Shown: positions 7,594 to 56,510 of the stretch, one piece after another | Layout of the letters: each line of letters starts with the position of its first letter | Position numbering within the stretch: position 1 is the first letter of the stretch | NCBI RefSeq assembly: GCF_009392895.1 | Contig: NZ_CP045488.1 | Span: 2,604,001 to 2,668,000 of the forward strand | Length of the DNA: 64,000 nucleotides | Direction: 5' to 3' | Origin: Natronorubrum aibiense | Lineage (GTDB): Archaea > Halobacteriota > Halobacteria > Halobacteriales > Natrialbaceae | Made by a program: the position numbers and the translations under genes | Notes under the pieces: model-generated | What the model saw: only the letters and a program-made list of their open reading frames with translations | What the model was told of the DNA's origin: nothing | Databases searched by the model: none

Positions 7594-8631
7594 ATGTCAG
7601 AGCAGGAGGAACGACCGGATTTCAAATATGATGGGCAACTCATCTTTAATGGGATCCGTGCAACAACTGTTCATTCAGAAAGGCCTGATGAGTTGAAAGA
7701 TGATCTTCTTGGGGGGCTATCTGAGTTCGAGAGAGGTAAGCCAAATAGAGAGAATGAGGGCTTTTCGGATATAGATCTCGCACGGTTAGCAAACGGTCAA
7801 GAGTATCTGCTTGAGAGTGACCTTGCGGAATTAGCAAGCAGGATCATAGATAAGAAATACACTTGGGAGAATTATAAAGGCACAAAGAATCTGGAATTTG
7901 TAGACAATAATGGAAAGCAAACAAGAGCCTGGTTGAGGCAGACAAATGAGGCTTATGTCTACTGGGATTACCCTGATTATATGCTTGTTCAAGGGGCCCA
8001 AGGAAAGGTAGAACAGACTGAGAAAGCGATAAACAGTGAATTAGGAGAGGATGTAACTGTAGACGATCTTGGTTTCCACCCAGACTTTCTTCTTTGGTTC
8101 CTTTATCGCCATGACTATGCTGAAGAGGGAATTCCAGGCCCGATCAAACCGATAAAGTTGGAGTCCTCGGAAGTTTCAGGCGATCTGGAACAGTACGGGC
8201 AAGTAAACCGGGTTGAAGATTCGAAAAACATTGGCGAATCACTACCAATCATCCTTGCTCTTCTCCAAGAGATGGACTTCCAAATGATGGAAGGAATATT
8301 CAAAGTGAATGGTTATGATGTCAATGCCGAAATAAAGAAGGAAGGTAGAATTCATGTTATGGTGAGCGGATCTATTGACCGCGCGGAAACCCATCTTAAA
8401 AGAGCGCTGATAGCGCTATTCTTCGTTTCAGAGTTTGTGAGGCTTTATAGAGAGTGGCAAAGCATGGACAAGAAAGAGAAGTATCCACCATTTACGTTCT
8501 TTGATGACCTCGCAGGAACTGCAGCAGAAAACAACGTTGATTTAGACTTTGATCTTGACAGTCTCATTGAAGACTTTGAAGAGAAGCGCGACGAAAGAGC
8601 AGACCCAGACGACTTTGACTATATTGGATAA
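7594..8631 (+). CDS. Unknown protein, first of an AT-rich three-gene set
   Basis: 345 residues from the ATG at 7594 (MSEQEERPDFKY). The frame opens at 7483 inside the previous gene, but the AT-rich stretch just before 7594 looks like a promoter. No domain is recognised. It looks globular and cytoplasmic, with a helical stretch (HLKRALIALFFVSEFVRLYREW) and an acidic tail. Base composition is clearly more AT-rich than the chromosome, so it was probably acquired. The two following genes have the same strand and composition, suggesting one functional unit. Confidence 0.6.
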   Translation: MSEQEERPDFKYDGQLIFNGIRATTVHSERPDELKDDLLGGLSEFERGKPNRENEGFSDIDLARLANGQEYLLESDLAELASRIIDKKYTWENYKGTKNLEFVDNNGKQTRAWLRQTNEAYVYWDYPDYMLVQGAQGKVEQTEKAINSELGEDVTVDDLGFHPDFLLWFLYRHDYAEEGIPGPIKPIKLESSEVSGDLEQYGQVNRVEDSKNIGESLPIILALLQEMDFQMMEGIFKVNGYDVNAEIKKEGRIHVMVSGSIDRAETHLKRALIALFFVSEFVRLYREWQSMDKKEKYPPFTFFDDLAGTAAENNVDLDFDLDSLIEDFEEKRDERADPDDFDYIG

Positions 8632-8687
8632 AAGAGAATTGGGGAAAAGACGTATGATGTGCCAATACAGATTTCAAACTAGATAGT

Positions 8688-9323
8688 ATGGTGGAAAGCG
8701 TCCGCAGAGCTCGAGTTCAGGACGTGGACAACCCATCGTTAGAACCTTCTGAGGAAATTGATATTACTCTTAATCCAGCAGAGGTCCCTCCCACATTTGA
8801 GGATTTAACTTTATATCCCTTTTCGGACCAGAAAATAGTTCGTGGTACCTATGAGTATGAGTCTTCGCCTCGATTCGGTAGCCCTGAAAAGGCAGAAGGA
8901 GAATTCCAGATTAGATCTGGGTCTGGCTTAATCATTTTACAGACAGATAGCGATCGTCCTCGTCCAGAGAAGATTCTTAAAGCATTAGAAAACAGTATAA
9001 ATAGTGGATTTGAAATAAAGAGCGATTTTGTTCCTAATCAGCGGAAGGCTTGGGACTTCGTAGAGAAATCTGATAAGGTATTAAGTTTGAAATTGTTTAC
9101 TCCTTCTGGTTCTGTCAAGAGAGCTAATGAGATAGATTCTGATTGGGATGAACTGAAGAATCAGAGCCCTATCAAGAATGCATATCTCGAATTTGAGAAT
9201 GCTGATGGAGAACCAATCCAAGTTGAATATCTGAATGATAGATTGATAATTGACTCAGAAGTGCAAAGTGATAGAGATTATATAATTCAGATCTTCGAGT
9301 CAACAGTAGTCTCTAATTCATAG
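8688..9323 (+). CDS. Unknown protein, second of the three-gene set
   Basis: 211 residues, rich in beta-type segments with charged linkers (FQIRSGSGLIILQT, then AYLEFENADGEPIQVEYL, then RLIIDSE). No signal peptide or membrane segment and no recognised domain. It starts 56 bases after the first gene and ends immediately before the ATG of the membrane-protein gene. AT-rich like its neighbours. Confidence 0.55.
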   Translation: MVESVRRARVQDVDNPSLEPSEEIDITLNPAEVPPTFEDLTLYPFSDQKIVRGTYEYESSPRFGSPEKAEGEFQIRSGSGLIILQTDSDRPRPEKILKALENSINSGFEIKSDFVPNQRKAWDFVEKSDKVLSLKLFTPSGSVKRANEIDSDWDELKNQSPIKNAYLEFENADGEPIQVEYLNDRLIIDSEVQSDRDYIIQIFESTVVSNS

Positions 9324-9965
9324 ATGAATGGTGACTCTAAATGGGATAGATATCTCCCCCAAAAAGCCATTATTTTTCTCAAGGCATATACAAGCACACT
9401 CCTGTTCAAGATCAGTCCTCTAATTTCCACTATATTCTGGATATCTTCTGCTATAGTGAACAAATTCTCAAAAGCAATACCCCATGCAGGAATGGCGTAT
9501 TTAAGTCTTGTCACTTTAGCTCTTGGAAGTATAATTCTCCCCAGCTTATGGTTCTACCAGCAAAACCGCCCCTTCCATATCTTCCTAACATGGACCCCTG
9601 CAGAACCAGAAGCGGTTGATCGACGTCTGAAACATAAAGAGTTAGTTCGAATCAGGGATGCAGAAAATGGAGGTGCGAATCCCTGCGCCATAATACACGT
9701 ATATGTTGATAAGAAGGTGGGGGAATATGAATTGAAAATTGATGCGAAGGGTCCTCTCAAAGCAAAACCAAGCTTTGCTCCTGCAGAATCTAAACACGAA
9801 GACGGAAATAAAATAGTGTGTCAGAATGTAGAAACTCATGATTTCTATTTCCCACTTGAAATAGAGGAGGTAACGGGACATGAGGGGGGAGAACTAAACA
9901 GATATGTGCATATCACTGACGAAAGGAGAAATGGCAGAAGGCTGTTAGAACTTGAAATTCTATAG
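9324..9965 (+). CDS. Membrane-anchored unknown protein, third of the three-gene set
   Basis: 213 residues. The N-terminus has two probable membrane segments (LLFKISPLISTIFWISSAIV and YLSLVTLALGSIILPSLWFY), followed by a soluble beta-rich domain of about 120 residues. Its ATG directly follows the stop of the preceding gene. A mini-transposon sits 4 bases after its stop, so any downstream partner would have been separated. Two soluble proteins plus one membrane protein fits a sensor/effector or superinfection-exclusion set, but no motif proves it. Confidence 0.55.
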   Translation: MNGDSKWDRYLPQKAIIFLKAYTSTLLFKISPLISTIFWISSAIVNKFSKAIPHAGMAYLSLVTLALGSIILPSLWFYQQNRPFHIFLTWTPAEPEAVDRRLKHKELVRIRDAENGGANPCAIIHVYVDKKVGEYELKIDAKGPLKAKPSFAPAESKHEDGNKIVCQNVETHDFYFPLEIEEVTGHEGGELNRYVHITDERRNGRRLLELEIL

Positions 9966-9977
9966 TTGAGTATATTT

Positions 9978-10517
9978 GGCTCTGTTGAAACCCTCAATCG
10001 CTGATAGTTTGGCGTGATCGTGCTGAATACAGAGGATAAGTTCAGCACGATAACTTTGTTTGGTACATATCAAAATTACTGAATATTATTCACACTACAC
10101 GTGCGCATATACCGGTAATTTCTTAAAAGCAATCTGCAAACTCAATTACATGACTACTATAATTGTGCCAAAAGAAAACCGGCCCAGTCTTACAAAGTAC
10201 GTCATTCTCACCATAGTTGGGATACTTTTCGTCAGCATATTCATCATATCGATGACGTATAAATACGAACAATTAGCGCTTGGTGGCTATTTTATTACAG
10301 GAATTATTAATATCACTATCATTTTCAAAATGATGGAATCCCTTCTCAAAGAATGGTTTGAAGCTGCGGAGCTCATCGAGGAGTGAACCAGTAGATACGA
10401 AGTGTGGCCCTGACTGAGCAACCACCACCTTCGCAAATCGGGCCAGATCTCGTGCAACATTTGCGCCCTGTATTCAGCACGACAATCCTGTCACGTTCTG
10501 AGGGTTTCAACAGAGCC
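9978..10517. mobile_element. 540-bp non-autonomous transposon with a small membrane-protein gene
   Basis: Perfect 19-bp terminal inverted repeats (GGCTCTGTTGAAACCCTCA at 9978-9996 and its complement at 10499-10517) are flanked by an exact 8-bp target duplication, GTATATTT (9970-9977 and 10518-10525). Subterminal inverted motifs (CGTGCTGAATACAGAG inside the left end, CTGTATTCAGCACG inside the right) lie further in. There is no transposase. The ends resemble those of the IS5-type element at 30557-32708, whose transposase or a relative may mobilise it. It carries one small ORF. Confidence 0.9.
10150..10386 (+). CDS. Small two-segment membrane protein carried by the mini-transposon
   Basis: 78 residues from the ATG at 10150 (MTTIIVPKENRPSL). 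The frame is open to 10060 but the upstream part looks non-coding. Two probable membrane helices: YVILTIVGILFVSIFIISM and LALGGYFITGIINITIIF. It is wholly inside the transposon and so is cargo. Function unknown. Confidence 0.5.
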   Translation: MTTIIVPKENRPSLTKYVILTIVGILFVSIFIISMTYKYEQLALGGYFITGIINITIIFKMMESLLKEWFEAAELIEE

Positions 10518-10528
10518 GTATATTTATA

Positions 10529-11116
10529 TCATATCCAATCAACCTTTCTACGCTCCCGTTGCTGAGCTTCTGGACTAAAACTGCCTCGATAGTGTTCAAG
10601 GAAGGTCTCAAGGTCATTCCATCCACCCCAGTCGCACACCATGAGTGGATCGACATCGGCGGAGGCGAGCGCGGTCGCCCAAGTCCGTCGGAGATCATGG
10701 AAGCCGAGATGGTCCCACCCAGCGTCTCCTGTTTCATCGTACAATTGGTCAGAAGCGGATCGAACCCACCGCCGAAGTGACCGAGTGCTTGAGATCTCGA
10801 CGAGCGGCGAGCTGGCCGATGCCTCGCGCACATCGTCGACCGTCCGGATGGTCGTCGCGAGATCGCGCGGAACGGGGGTCTCGCGGAACTTGTCTCCTTT
10901 CCCATGCCAGACGCGGAGCATCGTCCCGGCGTTGGTGTCAACGATGTCTTCCGGAGCGACGTCGAGAACTTCGTGAGAGCGGAGTCCGCAGCGCGCACCG
11001 AGTGCGAATGCAATTCGTTGCTGGGTTCCATCGGCAACCTCGAGCAACTGTTCTACTTCGTCCTGACTGAGCCAGACCTTCATGTCGTCGCGGTTCTCGT
11101 GCTGTTGGAGATTCAT
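10529..11116 (-). CDS. Second tyrosine recombinase, compact form
   Basis: 195 residues from MNLQQHENRDD (the frame is open to 11182). It is essentially a catalytic domain alone: Arg I in CGLRSHEVL, a Lys in GKGDKFRE, HxxR in FHDLRRTWA, and Tyr in FLEHYRGS. Short recombinases of this kind are known from haloviruses such as SNJ2 and from plasmids. It is not beside an attachment site. Its 3' end lies 3 bases from the mini-transposon target duplication. It may be a remnant of another element or act in resolution or DNA inversion. Confidence 0.75.
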   Translation of the reverse strand: MNLQQHENRDDMKVWLSQDEVEQLLEVADGTQQRIAFALGARCGLRSHEVLDVAPEDIVDTNAGTMLRVWHGKGDKFRETPVPRDLATTIRTVDDVREASASSPLVEISSTRSLRRWVRSASDQLYDETGDAGWDHLGFHDLRRTWATALASADVDPLMVCDWGGWNDLETFLEHYRGSFSPEAQQRERRKVDWI

Positions 11117-11257
11117 GGTGTCCGGTATGCCTGCATCTCGGACAAATATCGCCAGCAATCTAGGTTTTTCGGTGGTTCTCAAGGGGGTGATCGGGCCGAT
11201 TCTGTCCGACTCTACCGCAATTCTCGGACAAGCCAGATGATTTTCTCATCAGATATC

Positions 11258-11725
11258 TTAGGACGGAATCAGAGTTCCACCGATTGCTATACTTGTTCCA
11301 AGAACAGCGATTGCTAATCCAGTGTTACGACATGACCTTTCAATTGACAAGGTTAGCAGTTCTACCAGCGTACGCTGAGCTGGCTTACCTCCGAGAAACT
11401 GTTCTCTACTCCCATCAGAGTATTCTGCTTCAATGTGTGCCGCAACATTCTCTACTTTTGTTGGTAGACGATCTGGGGGGTCATTGATATCATGATCATC
11501 TACATAATCAACAAGTTCTTTACAGACACGTCGGTGTCCAATAGTAAATCTATGGCCCGAATCTCTATTTTTCACCCTTTTTCTGATACGGAAAAGGTCA
11601 CGAGTGAAAGGTGTATTTCTATAAAAATGCCTCCGAATTTGACGGTCTAGATCTGGAACAACACGGATGAATGTTCCTATACCTGTTAAAGTGATCCCAA
11701 TGGCAGATATGATCTGACCTATCAT
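11258..11725 (-). CDS. Small membrane protein of unknown function
   Basis: 155 residues with probable membrane helices at both ends (IISAIGITLTGIGTFI and TGLAIAVLGTSIAIGGTLI) and a basic, polar middle. No recognised family. AT-rich, in the accessory zone of the provirus. Confidence 0.45.
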   Translation of the reverse strand: MIGQIISAIGITLTGIGTFIRVVPDLDRQIRRHFYRNTPFTRDLFRIRKRVKNRDSGHRFTIGHRRVCKELVDYVDDHDINDPPDRLPTKVENVAAHIEAEYSDGSREQFLGGKPAQRTLVELLTLSIERSCRNTGLAIAVLGTSIAIGGTLIPS

Positions 11726-11893
11726 ATATTACTGATGAGTCGAGACAGCAGTTAATATCTCTCATGTCTTTGTATTCATCCGAGACTGTTCGTATTCTCG
11801 GACACCCCTATGGTGTGCCACGAGAAGGTTGTAACCGAGACTCCACATTCCTCCCCCTAGATTCATTATATCTGACTGTTCCTGTATAGATGA

Positions 11894-12322
11894 ATGGGTG
11901 AGTGTGATTTCCGGGATTGCTCTGGGGATGGTAGTATAGCAAACTCTTGCTCTTACTGCGGGTTTAGCTACTGCTCCAATCATCGACTCCCAGAGAAACA
12001 TAACTGTCCAGCATTATCAGATTTGAATACGCTTGGACCAGATTTTAGAGAAGAAATTAATCTCTCGGAATCAGTACCAAATAAGCAGTCTGTAAGTGAG
12101 ACAACCGAGAAGACAGAGTGTAATCGCTGTTCAAACTACACTACGTCTGAGCGCGAATTCTGCCTCGAATGCCGACGGAAAGAACAGACGATCTCCTCAA
12201 GGAGCCCAGACGTGAGTGTGGACGGGTCGGTTGAATCGAAGAACGATAGCGAAAAAGAAGATACAGACTCAAGTAACTCGGAAAGCATCCTATCTAAACT
12301 TAAATCGATCTTAGGACGCTGA
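11894..12322 (+). CDS. AN1-type zinc-finger protein
   Basis: 142 residues. The N-terminal 40 residues form an AN1-like finger: paired Cys in CDFRDC, CSYCGFSYCSNH, then HNCP. A second knuckle, CNRCSNY and CLECRR, lies at about 100-120, followed by a Ser/Asp-rich linker and a short C-terminal helix (ILSKLKSIL). AN1-finger proteins are common in haloarchaea, often on mobile DNA, and their role is unknown. Single gene, AT-rich. Confidence 0.6.
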   Translation: MGECDFRDCSGDGSIANSCSYCGFSYCSNHRLPEKHNCPALSDLNTLGPDFREEINLSESVPNKQSVSETTEKTECNRCSNYTTSEREFCLECRRKEQTISSRSPDVSVDGSVESKNDSEKEDTDSSNSESILSKLKSILGR

Positions 12323-47808: not shown

Positions 47809-47834
47809 GGCGTTGTGGTACGGTATTATGCACC

Positions 47835-48878
47835 ATGGCTGATTTCGATCTAGCAAGTCAAGAGGGCCGACTCGAGGCATTGCGCCGGATGGTAACGATC
47901 CGGGCATTCGACGAGGAGGCGGGGGATAGATTCGCAGACGGTGAGATACCGGGGTTCGTTCACCTGTATATTGGCGAGGAGGCGGTCGGGGTCGGCACCT
48001 GCGCCGCGCTGGACCCGGACGACTACATCGCGAGCACCCACCGCGGGCACGGCCACTGTATCGCAAAGGGGCTGGATCCGAAGTACATGATGGCCGAACT
48101 CTACGGCAAGGCCGACGGCTACTGTAACGGGAAGGGGGGCTCGATGCACATCGCGGACGTCGACGCCGGGATGCTCGGCGCGAACGGTATCGTCGGTGCG
48201 GGGCCGCCGATGGCGACCGGCGCGGCGCTGTCGATCGACTATCAAGACCGCGACCAGATCGCGGTCGGCTTCCTCGGCGACGGGGCCGTGGCCCAGGGAC
48301 AGGTCCACGAGGCGATCAACATCGCGGCGACGTGGGACCTGCCCGCCGTCTTCGTCATCGAGAACAACCACTACGGCGAGGGGACGCCGGTCGAAAACCA
48401 GCACAACCTCGACAACCTGAGCGACACGGCACAGGCCTACGACATCCCCGGCCTGACCATCGACGGGATGGATATTACTGCGGTTGCAGAAGCCGTTGCG
48501 GAGGCTCGAGACCGTGCCAGAGCCGGCGACGGGCCGACGCTCATCGAGGCCGAGACCTACCGCTACCGCGGCCACTACGAGGGCGACGAGGAACCGTACC
48601 GCGACGACGCGGAGATCGAACGCTGGCAGGAGCGCGACCCGATCGCGTCGTTCAAAGAGCGACTGATCGACCGCGGCGAACTCACCGCCGAGGAGTTCGA
48701 CGAGCTGCAGGCCGACATCGAGGCCGAAATCGATGCGGCGGTCGAGTACGCACAGGACGCCCCAGCACCGGACGCCCACGAGGCCTACGAAGACATGTTC
48801 GCGGAGATGCCACCGGAGATCGAACGCTTCGCCAGCGCCGCTCGCACCGATGGCGGCCGCCCGGGAGGTGACCGATAA
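47835..48878 (+). CDS. 2-oxoacid/acetoin dehydrogenase E1 component, alpha subunit
   Basis: 347 residues from MADFDLASQEGRLEAL. The thiamine-diphosphate motif is GDGAVAQGQVHEAINIA ... VIENNHYGEGTP, and the E1 alpha segment RGHGHCIAKGLDPKYMMAEL is present. It decarboxylates the substrate and passes the acyl or acetyl unit to E2 lipoate. AcoX-like and E2 genes nearby make acetoin a plausible substrate; pyruvate or branched 2-oxoacids remain possible. The stop overlaps the beta-subunit ATG (TAATG). Confidence 0.88.
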   Translation: MADFDLASQEGRLEALRRMVTIRAFDEEAGDRFADGEIPGFVHLYIGEEAVGVGTCAALDPDDYIASTHRGHGHCIAKGLDPKYMMAELYGKADGYCNGKGGSMHIADVDAGMLGANGIVGAGPPMATGAALSIDYQDRDQIAVGFLGDGAVAQGQVHEAINIAATWDLPAVFVIENNHYGEGTPVENQHNLDNLSDTAQAYDIPGLTIDGMDITAVAEAVAEARDRARAGDGPTLIEAETYRYRGHYEGDEEPYRDDAEIERWQERDPIASFKERLIDRGELTAEEFDELQADIEAEIDAAVEYAQDAPAPDAHEAYEDMFAEMPPEIERFASAARTDGGRPGGDR

Positions 48879-49885
48879 TGACTGCACAGGTAGAATCCGA
48901 ACTCGAGACCGAAACCGAGGAACTGACCGTCAGAGAAGCGATCCGACAGGCGATGCGCGAGGAACTCGAGCGCGACGAGGACGTCTTCCTCATCGGCGAG
49001 GACATCGGCGTCTTCGGCGGCGTCCTCGAGGTAACGGGCGATCTCTACGAGGACTTCGGCTCGGAGCGGATCAAGGACACGCCGATCAGCGAAGCCGGGT
49101 TCATGGGCGCAGCGACGGGTGCCGCAGCGACCGGCACGCGGCCGGTCGTCGAACTCATGTTCTCCGATTTCACCGGCGTCGCGATGGAACAGATCATGAA
49201 CCAGATGGCGAAGATGCGCTACATGTTCGGCGGCAAGGCGGAGATGCCGGTCACCGTCCGAACCACTGAAGGTGGCGGCATGGGTGCGGCGAGCCAGCAC
49301 TCGGGGACGATCCACTCGTGGATCTCCCACTTCCCCGGGCTGAAAGCCGTCGCCCCCGGCACCGCAGCGTCGGCGAAGGGGCTGACAAAAGCGGCTATCC
49401 GCTCGAACGATCCCGTCTTCGTCTTCGAGAACAAGATGATATACGAGCAACGAGGCGCGGTGCCGACCGACGAGGACTTCACCGTCCCGCTCGGCGAGGC
49501 TGCCATCGAACGCGAGGGCGAGGACGTCACCGTCGTCGCGACCCAACGGCTCGTCGGCGAGTCGCTCGAGACCGCCGAAAACATGGCCAACGACACGAGC
49601 GTCGAAGTGATCGACCCGCGGTCGCTGTACCCGCTCGACATCGACACCATCGTCGAGAGCGTCAAGAAGACCGGCCGGCTCATCGTCGCCGACGAGAGCC
49701 CGCTGTCCTACGGCACCCACGCCGAAATCGTCGCTCGCGTTCAGGAAGAGGCCTTCTTCAGCCTCGACGCGCCGATTCAGCGCGTCGGCACGCCCGACAC
49801 GCACATCCCATTCAGTCCGCCACTCGAGCAGGAAGTCCTGCCAACCGGCGACGACGTCCGTGAAGCGATCCAGCGGGTGACATAG
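48878..49885 (+). CDS. 2-oxoacid/acetoin dehydrogenase E1 component, beta subunit
   Basis: 335 residues. The beta-subunit pattern includes FLIGEDIGVFGGVL, TPISEAGFMGAATGAAATG, SQHSGTIHSWISHFPGLK, and the C-terminal transketolase-like IDPRSLYPLDIDTI. It forms the alpha2beta2 E1 with the preceding gene, to which it is coupled by a one-base overlap. Confidence 0.9.
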   Translation: MTAQVESELETETEELTVREAIRQAMREELERDEDVFLIGEDIGVFGGVLEVTGDLYEDFGSERIKDTPISEAGFMGAATGAAATGTRPVVELMFSDFTGVAMEQIMNQMAKMRYMFGGKAEMPVTVRTTEGGGMGAASQHSGTIHSWISHFPGLKAVAPGTAASAKGLTKAAIRSNDPVFVFENKMIYEQRGAVPTDEDFTVPLGEAAIEREGEDVTVVATQRLVGESLETAENMANDTSVEVIDPRSLYPLDIDTIVESVKKTGRLIVADESPLSYGTHAEIVARVQEEAFFSLDAPIQRVGTPDTHIPFSPPLEQEVLPTGDDVREAIQRVT

Positions 49886-49890
49886 CCATC

Positions 49891-50916
49891 GTGAGCCGCG
49901 TCGGACTGATCGTCAACCCCGCTGCGGGCCGCGATATCCGGCGGCTCACGGGTGGCGCAAGCGTCGTCGACAACTACGCGAAGCGTCGAGTCGCGACCTG
50001 CGTCTTAGACGGGCTGACGGCGGTTTCCGAGCCCCCGAACGTGGCAGTCATGCCCGACAGACGGGGCATCTCCGACCACGTCCTCGAGGAAGCTCCCGAC
50101 GGGCTCGCGGTCGACCCCCTCGAGATGACGGTCGAGAGCACCGCGGCCGACACGCGCCGGGCGGCGAGCCGGTTTCGCGAGGACGATGTCGACGTCGTCG
50201 TCGCCCTCGGGGGTGACGGGACGACCCGCGACGTCGCCTGCGAGATCGGTGACGTGCCCGTGGTCGCCGTCTCGACCGGGACGAACAACGTCGTGCCGAC
50301 GGCCGTCGACGGCACCGTCGCGGGCGTCGCTGCGGCGCTCCTCGCGACGGGTGCGGTTCCGGCGGCCGACGCGACCACGCGCCACGGGATGATCGAAGCC
50401 CGCGCGGAGACCGCAGGCGGCACACAACGGCTCTCGGCGCTCGCGGCCGCCGAGGTTTCCGCGCAGTCGTTCATCGGGACGCGGGCGCTGCTCGATCCCA
50501 GTGATCTCCGCGGCGGCGTCGTCTCGCGGGCCCACCCGGGCGATATCGGGCTCGCCGCCATCGCGGGGGCCGTCGAGTGTCTCGAGCCGACCGAACCGGG
50601 CGGCGTCGCCGTTCGGTTGACCGAGCCCGACGACGCTGTGCGGACCGTCCGTGCGGTACTCGCTCCGGGCGTCACCGCGACCGTCGGGATCGAGTCACTC
50701 GAGCGCCTCGAGTGGAACGAACCCGCCAAATTCGACGTGCCCGACGGCGTCGTCGGGGCCGACGGCGAGCGCGAACTCGAGCTCACAGAAACGACGGTCG
50801 AGCTCACGCCCGTCCCCGACGGTCCGCGACTCGTCGACGTCGACGCGACGCTGTCGGCCGCCGTCGACGTCGGCGCGCTCGAGCACGCCGGGCGGCTACA
50901 GCCGACCGAGGACTGA
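49891..50916 (+). CDS. AcoX-like ATP-NAD-kinase-fold protein
   Basis: 341 residues from a GTG. NAD-kinase-type motifs: VGLIVNPAAGRDIRR, the GGDGT box VVALGGDGTTRDVA, and VVAVSTGTNNVVP. Proteins of this kind (AcoX) lie in acetoin dehydrogenase operons; their reaction is unknown. Five bases separate it from the E1 beta gene, so it is in the same operon. This supports an acetoin-type complex here. Confidence 0.75.
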   Translation: MSRVGLIVNPAAGRDIRRLTGGASVVDNYAKRRVATCVLDGLTAVSEPPNVAVMPDRRGISDHVLEEAPDGLAVDPLEMTVESTAADTRRAASRFREDDVDVVVALGGDGTTRDVACEIGDVPVVAVSTGTNNVVPTAVDGTVAGVAAALLATGAVPAADATTRHGMIEARAETAGGTQRLSALAAAEVSAQSFIGTRALLDPSDLRGGVVSRAHPGDIGLAAIAGAVECLEPTEPGGVAVRLTEPDDAVRTVRAVLAPGVTATVGIESLERLEWNEPAKFDVPDGVVGADGERELELTETTVELTPVPDGPRLVDVDATLSAAVDVGALEHAGRLQPTED

Positions 50917-50986: not shown

Positions 50987-51496
50987 ATGGTTGGAAATAC
51001 CATACCAGAGTTGGACGTCGAGATCCCGGAGCTCTCACAGGTCGCGTTCGTCGTCGAAGACTTAGAGGACGGCATGGACCGCTTCGAGGGGCTGCTCGGG
51101 GTCGGCCCGTGGCAAGTGTATCGGTTCGAGCCGCCGGCGCTGACTGACCGCACCTTCCGCGGGGAGTCCCACGAGTACTCGATGCGGTTGGCGCTGGCCC
51201 AACTCGGCGAGACGATGTTCGAGTTGATCGAACCGCTCGAGGGACCGAGCATCTACACCGAACACTTAGAAGAACACGGCGAAGGGCTACACCACGTCGC
51301 CTGTTTCGCCTTCGACGATCCACACGCCGTCGTCGAGACGTTCGAGGAGGCCGGGATGCCCGTGATCCAGAGCGGGAACTTCGACGGCGTCGAGTACTGG
51401 TACTTCGACACTGCCGACGAACTAAACGGGACGATCTTCGAGACGGCGGCGAACGTCGACTCGATTCCCGAACCGGAGATGACCTACCCCGAGTAG
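50987..51496 (+). CDS. VOC-family protein (glyoxalase/epimerase-like)
   Basis: 169 residues. Two VOC half-domains: LSQVAFVVEDLEDGMDRFE and GLHHVACFAFDDPHAVVETF, with a His at GLHHV and Glu at MFELIEPL as possible metal ligands. It resembles methylmalonyl-CoA epimerase/glyoxalase-4 proteins. It is probably part of the dehydrogenase operon (70-base gap) and ends 26 bases before the convergent E2 gene. Confidence 0.7.
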   Translation: MVGNTIPELDVEIPELSQVAFVVEDLEDGMDRFEGLLGVGPWQVYRFEPPALTDRTFRGESHEYSMRLALAQLGETMFELIEPLEGPSIYTEHLEEHGEGLHHVACFAFDDPHAVVETFEEAGMPVIQSGNFDGVEYWYFDTADELNGTIFETAANVDSIPEPEMTYPE

Positions 51497-51522: not shown

Positions 51523-53325
51523 TCAGACTCGCTCCCAGCTGATCTCGAGATCGAGATCGTCTCGAACCAGCTGCGAGACGTGACAACCCCGTTCGCCGAG
51601 GGTAACGAGCCGATCAAGGGTGTCGTCGTCGGCATTGGATTCGAGTTTGACCGTCGCCTCGAGGACTTCGACCGAGCCGTGTTCGGGCTCGGCCGTCGTC
51701 GTGACGTCGATCCCAGCAACCGGCGTGTCGCGCTTGCCGGCCTGGAACCGGATACTCAGTGACAGACAGGCGGCGAGCGAGCCGAGGAAGACGTCGACCG
51801 GCGTCGGCCCTGTTTCGGTGCCGCCGGCCTCCTCGGGCTCGTCGTAGTCCCACTCGAACGAGCCGGCTTCGATCGTGCCGGCCATGCCGTCGGGGTTGTG
51901 TGCCGTGACCGTGCGCTCGGGCATTTCCGTCGGCGCGCCCGCTCCCGCGCCTGCTCCGGCGCTGATTTCATCGGGCAGCAGCGACCACGGCTCCTCGAGG
52001 TGTTCGACGAGTGTCTCGAGGAAGCGAGCGGCGTCGGCCCCGTCGACGATGCGGTGGTCGAAGGAGAGATCGAGCGGGAGCTGTCGTCGCCACTCAACGT
52101 CGTCGTTCGGGCCGCGTGTGGGGGCCTCCGAAATCGCGTTGACGCCGAGAATGGCGACCTGCGGCGGGTTGATGACCGGGTCGAACGACTCCACGCCGAG
52201 GACGCCGAGATTCGTCACCGTAAACGTCCCGCCCTGCAGGTCGTCCATCGTGTACTCGCCCTCGAGGGCCGATCCGACGAGGTCGCGCCGTTCGTCGGCG
52301 ATCGTCTCGAGCGACTTGTTCCCGACGTCGTGTAACACGGGGGCGATCAGCCCGTGTTCGACGTCGACGGCGAGGCCGACGTTGTGTTCCGCCCAGAGTG
52401 TGTGGACCTCGTCCTCGAACGTCGCGTTGAATTCGGGATGGTCCTCGAGGGTCGCCGAAATGGCGAGTACGAGCAGGTCCTGAATCGAGACGTCGGTCTC
52501 GAGGGCGTCGTCCGCGGCGTCGGTAGCCTCGAACAGTGCTTCGGCGTCGGCCTCACGGTGGACCGTCACGTGAACGGCTTCCCGATAGCTTTCGCCGAGG
52601 CGGCTGGCGATGGTTTGGCGCATCCCGCTGAACGGCCGCGTCTCGACTGGCGTTCGCCCGCCGCTGCCGGCCGCATCTTCCACGTCGTCTTCGGTGATCG
52701 AGCCCTGATAGCCCGTCCCCTCAACGGTTGTGAGGTCCACACCGAGCTCTTCGGCGCGCTTGCGTGCGCGTGGGGATGCGTTGATGTCCGCTTCGGCGGC
52801 CCCGCCCGATTCGGCGGCCGCTTCGACGTCGTCTTCGGTGATCGAGCCCTGATAGCCCGTCCCCTCGACGGTCGAGAGGTCGACTTCGAGGTCGGCGGCA
52901 CGTTCGCGGGCCCGTGGCGAGGCTCTGACCTCGTCGTCGGCCGTCGCGGCTGCCGTGTCGCTCGTCGCACCGCTGTCGGCGCTTGCGGCCGCCGACTCCT
53001 CGGCTGCTGGCTCCTCGGCCGCCGTCTCGCCCGTCGCCTCCTCGATGTCGGCCGACGCCTCTGCCTCGAGATCGGCGATGTCGGCGTCGTCAGGCGCGAC
53101 GATTCCGATCGGCGTGCCGGGGGGGACCGTCCCGCCCTCCTCGAGATACGTCTCCCTCAGGACACCGTTCTCCCGTGCTTCGACCTCGGCGATGCTCTTT
53201 TCGGATTCGACTTCCGCGATCACCTCGCCCTCCTCGACGGTCGCACCCGCGTCGATCCGCCACTCGAGCAGTTCGCCGCGTTCCATTTCCAGACCCAGCT
53301 TCGGCATCCTGACGATATAACCCAT
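51523..53325 (-). CDS. Dihydrolipoamide acyltransferase (E2) fused to an OsmC domain
   Basis: 600 residues. Lipoyl domain 1-76, with Lys in EVESEKSIAEVEA. Two E3/E1-binding domains, about 133-165 and 181-213, are nearly identical (SPRARERAADLEV and SPRARKRAEELGV). The catalytic domain is about 225-445, with DHRIVDGADAARFLETL. A Gly/Ala hinge is followed by an OsmC/Ohr-like domain, about 465-600, with SLAACLSLSIRFQAGK and GERGCHVSQLV, both with peroxidatic-type Cys. OsmC at the C-terminus of an E2 is unusual. Convergent with the E1 operon; E3 is not in the window. Confidence 0.9.
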   Translation of the reverse strand: MGYIVRMPKLGLEMERGELLEWRIDAGATVEEGEVIAEVESEKSIAEVEARENGVLRETYLEEGGTVPPGTPIGIVAPDDADIADLEAEASADIEEATGETAAEEPAAEESAAASADSGATSDTAAATADDEVRASPRARERAADLEVDLSTVEGTGYQGSITEDDVEAAAESGGAAEADINASPRARKRAEELGVDLTTVEGTGYQGSITEDDVEDAAGSGGRTPVETRPFSGMRQTIASRLGESYREAVHVTVHREADAEALFEATDAADDALETDVSIQDLLVLAISATLEDHPEFNATFEDEVHTLWAEHNVGLAVDVEHGLIAPVLHDVGNKSLETIADERRDLVGSALEGEYTMDDLQGGTFTVTNLGVLGVESFDPVINPPQVAILGVNAISEAPTRGPNDDVEWRRQLPLDLSFDHRIVDGADAARFLETLVEHLEEPWSLLPDEISAGAGAGAGAPTEMPERTVTAHNPDGMAGTIEAGSFEWDYDEPEEAGGTETGPTPVDVFLGSLAACLSLSIRFQAGKRDTPVAGIDVTTTAEPEHGSVEVLEATVKLESNADDDTLDRLVTLGERGCHVSQLVRDDLDLEISWERV

Positions 53326-53667
53326 GAGACATCATAGCATAACAACCACATAAAGTGTGCTGGTGGCTTTGCGCTCGTGAAGTATGGTTATCTCACTGAT
53401 ACGACGGAGTGGCGACGGACCGCCGAAACCACTTGCGCGGTGAGACGAACCGTCAACGGAGTGGGTAGAGACGGGCTGCGAGCGAGGACGAGAGATGGTG
53501 AATTGTGAATTGTTATTCGTTATCAATACCCAGTATCGGCATCGAGGACATCATATTTGGATGGTTGTTCATTCTTCACGATAGATGTATGGCAATGTAT
53601 AGCAAAGGCTTTAGGTTCAGTAGGGCAAAATTCCGGTACGGTTGGCCCACAGGCCACTGATTTACCT
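53326..53667. other. Divergent promoter region between E2-OsmC and korA
   Basis: 342 bases without a gene. It contains the E2 TATA-like box at its left and AT-rich sequence before korA at its right. No operator-like repeat is obvious. Confidence 0.45.
53349..53355 (-). promoter_or_regulatory. TATA-like box of the E2-OsmC gene
   Basis: On the minus strand CTTTATG lies 24-30 bases ahead of the ATG at 53325, as expected for a leaderless transcript. Sequence match only. Confidence 0.4.
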
Positions 53668-55572
53668 ATGAGCGACGACGAACTCATCTGGCGAATCGCA
53701 GGCGGTTCCGGCGACGGAATCGACTCGACGAGCCAGAACTTCGCGAAAGCGCTGATGCGCTCGGGGCTCGACATCTTTACCCACCGCCACTATCCGTCAC
53801 GGATCCGCGGCGGCCACACCTACGTCGAGATTCGGGCCGCAGACCACGAGGTACAGTCACGCGGGGACGGCTACAACTTCCTGCTCTCGCTGGGCGACTC
53901 CTTCGCCCGCAACCCGCAGGAAGAGGCCTTCTACGGCAACGAAGAGATCAAACCACTCTCGGAGAACCTGGACGAACTCCGAGAAGGTGGGATCATCGTC
54001 TACGACGAGGGCCTCATCAGTGAGGAAGACGTCGAGGCGATCAACCTCGAGGAGCGTGCCGAGGAGAACAACTGGCACGTCTTCCCGATCGACCTTCGAA
54101 GCCTCGCCAAGGAACACGGCCGTGAAGTCATGCGAAACACCGCTGGGGTCGGTGTCACGGCCGCACTGCTCGACATGGAACTCGAGCACATCGAGAACCT
54201 GATGTCGGACGCGATGAGCGACGACATCCTCGAGGCGAATCTCGAGATCCTCCACGAGGCCTACGAGATGACCATCGAGGAGTACGACTTCGAGCACGAT
54301 CTGCGTGCCCCAGAAGGCACCCACGAGACCGAGCAGGCGCTGCTGTCGGGCTCGAACGCGATCGCCTACGGCGCGATCGACGGTGGCTGTCGGTTCATCT
54401 CCGGCTACCCGATGACGCCGTGGACGGACGTCTTCACCATCCTCAGTCAGAACTTCCCCGACATGGGCGGGATCTCCGAGCAGGTCGAAGACGAGATCGC
54501 GGCCGCCGCACTGGCCGTCGGTGCCAGCCACGCTGGTGTCAAGGCCATGTCCGGCTCCTCCGGTGGCGGCTTCGCGCTGATGTCCGAGCCGCTCGGCCTC
54601 GCCGAGATGACCGAGACGCCGCTCGTGCTCGTCGAATCGATGCGTGCCGGTCCATCGACGGGGATGCCGACCAAACCCGAACAGGGAGACCTCGAGTTCG
54701 TGCTCTATACGAGTCAGGGCGACTCCTCGCGCGTCGTCTTCGCGCCGGGCACCATCGAGGAGGCCTACGAGCAGACGCGACTCGCCTTCGACATCGCCTG
54801 GGAGTACCAGATCCCGACGATCATCATCTACGACCAGAAGCTCTCCGGCGAGAACACGAACGTCGACGTCGAGTTCTTCGACCGCGAGCCCGAACCCGGA
54901 CTGGGCACGACGCTGACCGAGGAGGAACTCCTCGAGGCCGCCCACGACGCCTCCGGCAAGTTCGAACGCTTCGGCTACGACGACAACGAGAAGAACGTGA
55001 GCAAACGGTCGCTGCCCGGCCAGAAAGGCGGGCGCTACCTCGCGACCGGGAACGAACACTCGCCCGTCGGCCACATCAGCGAAGATCCGGACAACCGGGT
55101 CTACCAGATGACCCGCCGTATCGAGAAACTCGACTCCATCCGCGAGGAACTCGACGAGGAACACCCCTCGAACCAGACCTACTACGGCGACGAGACGGCC
55201 GACTACGGGATCATCACGTGGGGCTCGAGCCACGGGGCCGTCGCCGAAGCCGTCGAGCGTCTGAACGACGACGGCCACTCGGTCAAAGGCATCACCGTCT
55301 CCGACATGATGCCGTTCCCCGAGAAGGAGATGACCGAGTTCTTGGAGAGCGTCGACGAGGCGATGGTCGTCGAGATGAACGCCACGGCCCAGTTCCGCGG
55401 CCTCATCCAGAAGGAACTCGGTCGCTTCGGCGAGAAACTGACAAGCCTCCTCAAGTACAACGGCAACCCGTTCGAACCCGCCGAGGTCGTCGAGGGCTAC
55501 GAGGTCAACGTCGCCGAGGAGGAGCGTGAACCGACTGCACAGGTCCGAATCGAACCCGCAGCAGGTGACTAA
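53668..55572 (+). CDS. korA: 2-oxoacid:ferredoxin oxidoreductase, alpha subunit (gamma-alpha fusion)
   Basis: 634 residues from MSDDELIWRIAGGSGDGID. The N-terminal gamma-type domain (to about 200) includes HYPSRIRGGHTYVEIR. The alpha domain has FISGYPMTPWTDVF and MSGSSGGGFALMSE, then the C-terminal part with the MMPFPEKEM segment. With KorB it oxidatively decarboxylates pyruvate or 2-oxoglutarate, reducing ferredoxin; haloarchaea use these enzymes in the central pathway. The upstream open frame from 53557 is not used. Two bases before korB. Confidence 0.9.
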   Translation: MSDDELIWRIAGGSGDGIDSTSQNFAKALMRSGLDIFTHRHYPSRIRGGHTYVEIRAADHEVQSRGDGYNFLLSLGDSFARNPQEEAFYGNEEIKPLSENLDELREGGIIVYDEGLISEEDVEAINLEERAEENNWHVFPIDLRSLAKEHGREVMRNTAGVGVTAALLDMELEHIENLMSDAMSDDILEANLEILHEAYEMTIEEYDFEHDLRAPEGTHETEQALLSGSNAIAYGAIDGGCRFISGYPMTPWTDVFTILSQNFPDMGGISEQVEDEIAAAALAVGASHAGVKAMSGSSGGGFALMSEPLGLAEMTETPLVLVESMRAGPSTGMPTKPEQGDLEFVLYTSQGDSSRVVFAPGTIEEAYEQTRLAFDIAWEYQIPTIIIYDQKLSGENTNVDVEFFDREPEPGLGTTLTEEELLEAAHDASGKFERFGYDDNEKNVSKRSLPGQKGGRYLATGNEHSPVGHISEDPDNRVYQMTRRIEKLDSIREELDEEHPSNQTYYGDETADYGIITWGSSHGAVAEAVERLNDDGHSVKGITVSDMMPFPEKEMTEFLESVDEAMVVEMNATAQFRGLIQKELGRFGEKLTSLLKYNGNPFEPAEVVEGYEVNVAEEEREPTAQVRIEPAAGD

Positions 55573-55574
55573 CC

Positions 55575-56510
55575 ATGAGTGCATTCAACGCAATCGGAGA
55601 GGAGCGAGAGATCGACCGGGACGAGTTCACCCCCGGTGTCGAACCACAGCCGACCTGGTGTCCGGGCTGTGGTGACTTCGGCGTCCTGAAGTCGCTGAAG
55701 CAGGCCCTCCCGGAAGTCGGCAAGACGCCAGAGGAAGTACTGACGGTGACCGGGATCGGCTGTTCGGGCAAGCTGAACAGCTACCTCGACACGTACGGCT
55801 TCCACACGATCCACGGTCGATCGCTGCCCGTGGCCCGTGCCGCCAAACTCGCCAACCCCGAACTTGAAGTCATCGCCGCTGGCGGTGACGGTGACGGGTA
55901 CGGCATCGGTGGCAACCACTGGATCCACACGGCCCGGGAGAACCACGACATCACCTACATCGTCTTCAACAACGAGATCTTCGGCCTGACGAAAGGCCAG
56001 ACCTCGCCGACGAGTCCCAAAGGCCACAAATCGAAGACCCAGCCATCCGGCAGCGCGAAGATGCCGCTGCGTCCGCTGTCGATGTCGCTGAACGCCGGTG
56101 CGAGCTACGTCGCCCGCACCGCTGCGGTCAATCCGAATCAGGCCAAAGAGATCATCAAGGAAGCCATCGAACACGACGGCTTCGCCCACGTCGACTTCCT
56201 GACCCAGTGTCCAACCTGGAACAAGGACGCCCGACAGTACGTCCCCTACATCGACGTCCAGGAGTCCGACGACTACGACTTCGACGTCACGGACCGTCGT
56301 GAGGCCGCCGAGATGATGCACGAGACCGAGGACGTCCTCAACGAGGGCACCGTCCTGACCGGTCGCTACTACGTCGACGAGGATCGTCCGTCCTACACCG
56401 AGGAGAAGAAGGCCGTCGGCGAACTGCCCGACGAGCCGCTGGCCGAGCGCTACTTCGACGACGACGCCGAGTGGGAGCGCAGCTACGACCTGCTCGACCG
56501 TCACAAGTAA
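55575..56510 (+). CDS. korB: 2-oxoacid:ferredoxin oxidoreductase, beta subunit
   Basis: 311 residues. Thiamine and Fe-S features: PTWCPGCGDFGVLKSL, GIGCSGKLNSYL, the GDG motif AAGGDGDGYGIGGNHW, and FNNEIFGLTKGQTSPT. It pairs with KorA, 2 bases upstream. The Cys residues in CPGCG and GIGC and in DFLTQCPTW are the expected cluster ligands. Substrate choice (pyruvate or 2-oxoglutarate) cannot be read from sequence alone. Confidence 0.93.
   Translation: MSAFNAIGEEREIDRDEFTPGVEPQPTWCPGCGDFGVLKSLKQALPEVGKTPEEVLTVTGIGCSGKLNSYLDTYGFHTIHGRSLPVARAAKLANPELEVIAAGGDGDGYGIGGNHWIHTARENHDITYIVFNNEIFGLTKGQTSPTSPKGHKSKTQPSGSAKMPLRPLSMSLNAGASYVARTAAVNPNQAKEIIKEAIEHDGFAHVDFLTQCPTWNKDARQYVPYIDVQESDDYDFDVTDRREAAEMMHETEDVLNEGTVLTGRYYVDEDRPSYTEEKKAVGELPDEPLAERYFDDDAEWERSYDLLDRHK

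What the first reader, a model, noticed from the sequence alone, without database searches (positions are those of the whole stretch)
51523..53325. E2 acyltransferase fused to a C-terminal OsmC/Ohr domain
One 600-residue frame joins lipoyl, two binding domains, the intact E2 catalytic domain and an OsmC domain with two Cys. Ohr-type peroxidases are known to take electrons from lipoylated proteins, so the fusion would couple the complex's own lipoate to peroxide removal.
Basis: partly seen in the sequence, partly recalled or inferred. Interest (0 to 1): 0.75.

Follow-up and report, generated by a model that had tools for sequence, protein, structure and literature searches.

The report
Dehydrogenase core protein fused to OsmC
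A salt-loving archaeon carries one gene that joins the core (E2) subunit of a keto-acid- or acetoin-type dehydrogenase complex to a two-cysteine OsmC domain; the fusion is real and old in haloarchaea, but the OsmC domain lacks two active-site residues of the peroxidase it was compared with and often outlives the rest of the complex, so the proposed lipoate-to-peroxide circuit is not shown.

Summary
The fusion is real. On the minus strand (51523-53325) a 600-aa frame joins lipoyl, two E3-binding, intact E2 catalytic and OsmC domains. About 50 of 391 haloarchaeal genomes carry a fusion-length frame; one bacterial MAG has the same architecture. The lipoyl Lys is kept in 49 and the E2 DHR motif in all 50 non-redundant fusions examined; both OsmC Cys in all 65 OsmC-bearing proteins.

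The 'Ohr-type' label fails: the Ohr/OsmC catalytic Glu is never present (0/41), the Arg column is mostly Met/Leu, and the NCBIfam Ohr model scores 20.7 bits against a cut-off of 88.85. By these signatures the domain belongs with the YhfA-like, Arg/Glu-less class, whose activity is unknown.

Cis-lipoate coupling is not obligatory. In 11 reduced relatives (at least 4 independent origins in Natrialbaceae alone) the E2 core, neighbouring E1 and the lipoylatable Lys are gone while both Cys stay. Haloterrigena keeps OsmC as a separate gene; other relatives of the complex have no OsmC.

Best reading: the E2 of a haloarchaeal acetoin-like complex (E1alpha, E1beta, AcoX alongside) carrying a detachable dithiol redox domain. 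Noticed in passing: relatives with a catalytically dead E2 always carry an alpha/beta hydrolase gene nearby.

The parts
51523..53325 (-). E2-OsmC fusion gene, 600 aa, ATG start
   Evidence: same architecture in 50 non-redundant relatives
53104..53313 (-). lipoyl domain (residues 5-74), lipoyl-Lys motif ESEKS, K43
   Evidence: Pfam; K43 invariant in alignment of 25 fusions
52810..52935 (-). first E3/E1-binding (PSBD) domain, about residues 131-172
   Evidence: (two stretches)
52678..52785 (-). second E3/E1-binding (PSBD) domain, residues 181-216
   Evidence: Pfam
51976..52647 (-). E2 acyltransferase catalytic domain (residues 227-450) with FDHRIVDG
   Evidence: Pfam; D423 H424 R425 invariant; Foldseek hits to E2 cores
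51526..51924 (-). OsmC domain (residues 468-600), YhfA-like (Arg/Glu-less), C520 and C581
   Evidence: Pfam; AlphaFold pLDDT 95.7; residue test; fold matches
47832..48878 (+). E1 alpha of the complex
   Evidence: Pfam E1_dh 308 bits
48878..49885 (+). E1 beta of the complex
   Evidence: Pfam Transket_pyr and Transketolase_C
49891..50916 (+). AcoX-like protein (NAD-kinase/DAGK-type domain); naming as AcoX is by analogy with acetoin clusters
   Evidence: Pfam NAD_kinase, DAGK_cat; kept in 42 of 50 fusion loci
50987..51496 (+). glyoxalase/VOC protein (methylmalonyl-CoA-epimerase-like), convergent with the fusion gene
   Evidence: Pfam Glyoxalase_4; kept in many fusion loci
53557..56510 (+). korA and korB, 2-oxoacid:ferredoxin oxidoreductase, divergent neighbour (synteny seen only in Natrialbaceae); named from my reading of the sequence, not scanned against Pfam
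   Evidence: ORFs; conserved beside the fusion in Natrialbaceae loci

Best explanation
The protein is the E2 (lipoyl/acyltransferase) core subunit of a haloarchaeal E1alpha-E1beta-AcoX complex (acetoin-dehydrogenase-like or 2-oxoacid-dehydrogenase-like; substrate unknown) that carries, through a flexible linker, a C-terminal OsmC-superfamily domain of the YhfA-like (Arg/Glu-less) class. Shown: domain order, intact lipoyl Lys and E2 active-site motif, two invariant Cys, absence of the Ohr catalytic Glu and usually the Arg, repeated survival of the OsmC domain without E2, neighbouring E1 or the lipoyl Lys, and absence of OsmC from some otherwise intact relatives of the complex. Inferred: the E2 part does ordinary E1-to-CoA acyl transfer; the OsmC part is a separable dithiol/disulfide redox enzyme or sensor (peroxide, another electrophile or a protein disulfide as substrate) that the fusion holds close to the complex. 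In intact fusions its disulfide could be re-reduced by dihydrolipoyl arms of the complex, but this is optional, because the domain is maintained without them.
For: Domains and motifs. Conservation across about 50 genomes. Single clade of haloarchaeal fused E2s (97/99). OsmC fold with the second Cys (C117 in domain numbering) at the break in the second helix, as in the kinked alpha2 of Ohr/OsmC; matches to Ta0195 2onf, YhfA 1ml8 (TM 0.83, Z 15.3) and Ohr 6mjn. Glu/Arg columns. NCBIfam Ohr 20.7 bits against 88.85. Reduced forms: 11 proteins, 0 with lipoyl Lys, 0 with E1 or AcoX in the locus, 11 with both Cys; at least 4 (parsimony 6) independent origins on the KorA tree; in eight of nine reduced-form genomes searched no E1alpha above 41% identity exists. 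OsmC stays constrained (pN/pS 0.25-0.36) while the lipoyl remnant relaxes (0.39-0.71, against 0.02-0.34 in fusions). OsmC-less relatives of the same E1-AcoX complex nested among fusion carriers.
Against: No biochemistry. The pN/pS values rest on a few pairs, short regions and partly saturated synonymous sites. The fusion is still commoner than the split or reduced forms, which suggests that proximity to the complex is useful. YhfA-like classification is by two residues and fold, not by a resolved tree. The acetoin assignment rests on gene neighbours only.
Confidence: 0.6

Rival explanations
1. One reading: the OsmC domain is a lipoyl-dependent peroxidase (Ohr-like) that draws electrons from the complex's own dihydrolipoyl arms and destroys peroxides formed by the E1/E2/E3 chemistry.
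For: Fusion to a lipoyl protein; both Cys invariant; Ohr/OsmC are reduced by lipoylated proteins (PMC8945050); OsmC with an incomplete glycine decarboxylase complex reported in Trichomonas (title cited in PMC10332631); Ohr-dihydrolipoamide structures are among the fold matches (6ebd, 6ebg).
Against: Catalytic Glu absent in 41/41, Arg column not conserved; Ohr model far below cut-off; domain kept when lipoyl Lys, E2 and E1 are lost and lost when they are kept.
Confidence: 0.25
2. Convenience fusion: the OsmC domain has a cell-wide job unrelated to the complex and is merely co-expressed and co-translated with E2.
For: OsmC persists as a reduced protein in several lineages and as a solo gene in Haloterrigena; the complex persists without OsmC.
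Against: Fusion conserved across several haloarchaeal families; in Haloterrigena the solo gene still lies inside the same gene cluster; the same domain order is found in a bacterial MAG.
Confidence: 0.2
3. The OsmC domain handles the acyl-lipoyl thioester itself (Cys-based thioesterase or acyl-transfer helper), by analogy with the alpha/beta hydrolases that accompany dead E2s in relatives of this complex.
For: PDB 9wo1 (400 aa, OsmC stretch 275-389) is among the best sequence matches, and its N-terminal part is, from memory, an alpha/beta hydrolase; pseudo-E2 clusters always have an alpha/beta hydrolase gene.
Against: All OsmC-fused E2s have an intact DHRxx[DN]G catalytic motif, so no acyl-handling gap needs filling; two Cys in the disulfide-type positions argue for redox chemistry.
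Confidence: 0.05
4. Artefact: sequencing or assembly error joining two genes.
For: None found.
Against: Same frame in 50 non-redundant loci from independent assemblies.
Confidence: 0.005

Closest known systems
Haloferax volcanii OADHC3 (oadhAB3, HVO_0669/HVO_0668) and bacterial acetoin dehydrogenase (AcoA/AcoB with AcoX)
   Same: E1alpha/E1beta of 2-oxoacid-dehydrogenase type similar to AcoA/AcoB (54%/47% to B. subtilis for oadhAB3, PMC8305020); an AcoX-like gene follows E1beta in the window.
   Different: No paper found mentions an OsmC domain on the E2; identity of the window cluster with OADHC3 is my inference, not tested with the H. volcanii sequence. Substrate of oadhAB3 unknown; pyruvate and 2-oxoglutarate excluded.
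Ohr (organic hydroperoxide resistance protein)
   Same: Fold, two Cys, known electron supply from lipoylated proteins.
   Different: Ohr Glu absent in 41/41, Arg not conserved, Ohr family model not met.
YhfA-like OsmC proteins (E. coli YhfA, PDB 1ml8)
   Same: Two Cys without the Ohr/OsmC Arg and Glu; P-[TS]-P-x-[DE] before the first Cys; fold match Z 15.3, rmsd 2.0 over 126 residues.
   Different: Low sequence identity (17%); YhfA is not fused to E2.
Ordinary E2 of the same genome (C1:1552118, next to E3)
   Same: Lipoyl, PSBD and 2-oxoacid_dh domains.
   Different: No OsmC domain; an E3 gene is adjacent, which the window cluster lacks.
OsmC-containing PDB entry 9wo1 (400 aa, 'Osmotically inducible protein C')
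   Same: A related OsmC domain at the C-terminus of a larger protein (43.5 bits, residues 275-389).
   Different: Different partner domain; not an E2.

Membership tests
2-oxoacid dehydrogenase E2 | lipoyl domain with lipoyl-Lys, PSBD, catalytic domain | tested here: met
   K43 and DHR motif invariant
2-oxoacid dehydrogenase E2 of a named substrate class | NCBIfam equivalog cut-off | tested here: not met
   best TIGR01349 281 bits against 445: the E2 cannot be named by substrate
OsmC superfamily (PF02566) | Pfam score above cut-off and OsmC fold | tested here: met
   52.7 bits against 27.5; Z about 15 to OsmC-fold structures
Ohr | catalytic Arg and Glu beside the peroxidatic Cys | tested here: not met
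   Glu column V37/I3/P1; Arg column R in 3 of 41
Ohr | NCBIfam Ohr model (TIGR03561) | tested here: not met
   20.7 bits against 88.85
Ohr | two conserved Cys | tested here: met
   65 of 65 (three motif variants read by eye)
Ohr | lipoyl-dependent organic peroxidase activity | not testable with these tools
   needs an assay
YhfA-like class | two Cys, no Arg, no Glu (definition in PMC8945050) | tested here: met
YhfA-like class | common ancestry with YhfA to the exclusion of Ohr/OsmC | tested here: inconclusive
   fold matches to 2onf, 1ml8 and 6mjn differ by less than 1 in Z; no resolved tree with YhfA was built
Acetoin dehydrogenase complex | AcoA/AcoB-like E1 with AcoX | tested here: inconclusive
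   AcoX-like neighbour; E1 linked to oadhAB3/AcoAB only through literature
Acetoin dehydrogenase complex | acetoin as substrate | not testable with these tools
   needs an assay

The most novel reading that the evidence does not exclude
A haloarchaeal dehydrogenase complex whose E2 core carries its own thiol-redox domain of a functionally uncharacterised (YhfA-like) class, which oxidises, protects or gates the dihydrolipoyl arms of the complex. Around one E1-AcoX pair nature swaps E2 outfits: E2-OsmC fusion, plain E2, or dead E2 plus alpha/beta hydrolase, with OsmC repeatedly freed as a stand-alone protein.
Probability: 0.25. Interest if true: 0.75.

Novelty: new variant of a known kind. Interest (0 to 1): 0.55.

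Why it matters
YhfA-like OsmC proteins have no known substrate. A natural, widely conserved fusion to a lipoylated enzyme core gives a testable partner, and the natural loss series (fusion, fusion without lipoyl Lys, reduced protein, solo OsmC) gives ready-made constructs to ask whether the OsmC domain needs lipoate at all. It also exposes variants of haloarchaeal 2-oxoacid/acetoin-type complexes whose substrates have been an open question.

Tried and rejected
Sequencing-error reading: rejected. Ohr membership: rejected on residues and family model. 'Lipoyl-OsmC two-domain proteins prove lipoate-OsmC coupling' was my first idea on seeing the 244-339 aa relatives; rejected because the lipoyl Lys is gone in all of them. 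Bacterial MAG fusion as an independent, convergent origin: undecided; the E2 quick tree puts it with ordinary E2s (AU p 0.06 for one clade), the careful tree puts it next to the haloarchaeal fusions with weak support 84/15. Fusions elsewhere in the phylum: none recognised outside Halobacteria in the genomes searched (the one long frame there, 553 aa, was checked as L169 and is not an E2). Plasmid records: E2 matches only, none covering 80% of the query. Literature: no paper in the held open-access library was found to mention an E2-OsmC fusion; subscription papers on haloarchaeal OADHC (Jolley 2000, van Ooyen 2007) and the H. volcanii OADHC3 E2 sequence could not be read. Fold search with the full-length model returned E2 cores only, as expected.

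Full report
Observation. The described protein is encoded on the minus strand of 51523-53325 (the + strand has stops there; the minus-strand ORF is 600 aa with ATG). Pfam finds one lipoyl domain, two E3-binding stretches, a full 2-oxoacid_dh catalytic domain and an OsmC domain, all above the curated cut-offs. The lipoyl Lys (ESEKS), the E2 FDHRIVDG motif and two OsmC Cys (C520, C581) are present.

Surroundings. On the + strand lie E1alpha (47832-48878), E1beta (48878-49885), an AcoX-like NAD-kinase/DAGK-type protein (49891-50916) and a glyoxalase-type protein (50987-51496), convergent with the fusion gene. On the other side a korA/korB pair (53557-56510) is divergent. The genome has a second, ordinary E2 without OsmC beside an E3 gene (C1:1552118 and C1:1552940); the window cluster itself has no E3. 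So the protein is the E2 of a separate complex. It resembles the acetoin-like OADHC3 of Haloferax volcanii, whose substrate is unknown (PMC8305020); that equivalence is inference.

Is the fusion real and conserved? A class-wide search with the OsmC domain gave 72 of 391 haloarchaeal genomes with a match, 50 of them inside a frame of at least 490 aa (my count). I read the architecture in 40 fetched regions and 35 named loci. After removing duplicates there are 50 fusions: 49 with the lipoyl Lys motif, 50 with the DHR motif, all with both Cys (three Cys-motif variants checked by eye). The haloarchaeal fused E2s form one clade (97/99). One bacterial MAG (L111/L167) has E1alpha, E1beta and an E2-OsmC fusion; whether it shares the haloarchaeal origin is undecided. 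No fusion was recognised in other classes of the phylum among the genomes searched.

What kind of OsmC? AlphaFold models the domain at pLDDT 95.7 with the second Cys at the break between two helices, as in the OsmC/Ohr fold. Structure matches to 2onf (Ta0195), 1ml8 (YhfA) and 6mjn (Ohr) are close to tied. At residue level the domain departs from Ohr and OsmC: the catalytic Glu column is V37/I3/P1 among 41 members and the Arg column has Arg in 3 of 41, while both Cys are invariant; E. coli YhfA shows the same lack of Glu (also the HMMER alignment to 6mjn). The NCBIfam Ohr model gives 20.7 bits against a cut-off of 88.85. YhfA proteins are described in the literature as having the two Cys but lacking this Arg and Glu, with activity still to be investigated (PMC8945050; PMC4069020). 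So 'Ohr-type' is not supported; 'YhfA-like' fits by signature, not by a resolved tree.

Does OsmC depend on the complex? Eleven relatives are reduced to 210-339 aa: a lipoyl-like remnant plus OsmC. None keeps the lipoyl Lys, none has E1 or AcoX in its locus, all keep both Cys. In eight of nine reduced-form genomes searched, E1alpha matches are 41% identical or less, so the orthologous E1alpha is absent; Natrinema gelatinilyticum has an orthologue (75%) on a megaplasmid. L046 is a second copy in a genome (G317) that also has an intact fusion cluster (L045). On a tree of the neighbouring KorA the reduced form needs 6 changes, at least 4 of them forced by well-supported branches; L046, L054 and L055 lie outside that tree and add more. 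Between close pairs, pN/pS in OsmC is 0.25-0.36 in reduced forms (0.14-0.27 in fusions), while the lipoyl remnant rises to 0.39-0.71 (fusions 0.02-0.34) (few pairs, short regions). Haloterrigena carries OsmC as a separate 192-aa gene in the cluster, beside an E2 whose catalytic motif is degenerate. L056 keeps E2 and OsmC but has lost the lipoyl Lys and has no E1 in its locus. The complex in turn exists without OsmC: of 20 fetched OsmC-less E1alpha loci, 8 have a plain, motif-intact E2, and on the E1 tree these are nested among fusion carriers. So each half is kept without the other; the fusion is an optional pairing, and cis lipoate is not what keeps the OsmC domain in the reduced forms. Lipoate supplied in trans by other lipoylated proteins is not excluded.

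Mechanism. Shown: anatomy, conservation, residue losses, evolutionary separability. Inferred: E2 performs E1-to-CoA acyl transfer; OsmC performs two-Cys redox chemistry near the complex, possibly re-reduced by dihydrolipoyl arms in intact fusions.

Pseudo-E2 side finding. In 15 further loci (L166, L206-L216, L218, L226, L227) and in Haloterrigena the E2 keeps the lipoyl Lys and PSBDs but has lost DHRxxDG (typically LTYDTRA), and each of these clusters has an alpha/beta hydrolase gene (Abhydrolase_3 in the one scanned, L226; the rest by similarity to it), found in none of the motif-intact fusion loci or plain-E2 loci. Bacterial AcoC is, from memory, a lipoyl plus alpha/beta-hydrolase protein, so this looks like a split arrangement of that kind. 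It was not pursued further.

Verdict. Real, old and widespread fusion; first interpretation only partly right; new variant of a known kind.

Noticed in passing
L206-L216, L218, L226 (Halocatena marina plasmid), L227 (Haladaptatus halobius plasmid), L166 (Natrinema gelatinilyticum), Haloterrigena L063/L066-L068/L085: The same E1alpha-E1beta-AcoX complex occurs with an E2 whose catalytic DHRxxDG motif is lost (lipoyl Lys and PSBDs kept), always with an alpha/beta hydrolase gene in the cluster; the hydrolase is absent from clusters with a motif-intact E2.
   Followed up: partly
L111 / L167 (bacterial MAG; in L167 E1alpha 10963-12021, E1beta 9459-10430, fusion 7796-9469): E2-OsmC fusion beside E1alpha/E1beta in a bacterial MAG labelled Proteobacteria; the only bacterial case found, origin relative to the haloarchaeal fusion undecided.
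   Followed up: partly
L056 9795-11225: Fusion protein with intact E2 motif and OsmC Cys but a decayed lipoyl domain without the Lys, and no E1 in the locus: an intermediate between fusion and reduced forms.
   Followed up: partly
L076 and L110 (Natrarchaeobius): Divergent E2-OsmC genes on the same strand as E1alpha and E1beta with an E3 gene in the neighbourhood, unlike the convergent arrangement in the window.
   Followed up: no
window 50987-51496: Glyoxalase/VOC protein (weakly methylmalonyl-CoA-epimerase-like, 41.9 bits against 114.95) that travels with many of the E1-AcoX-E2 clusters; role unknown.
   Followed up: no
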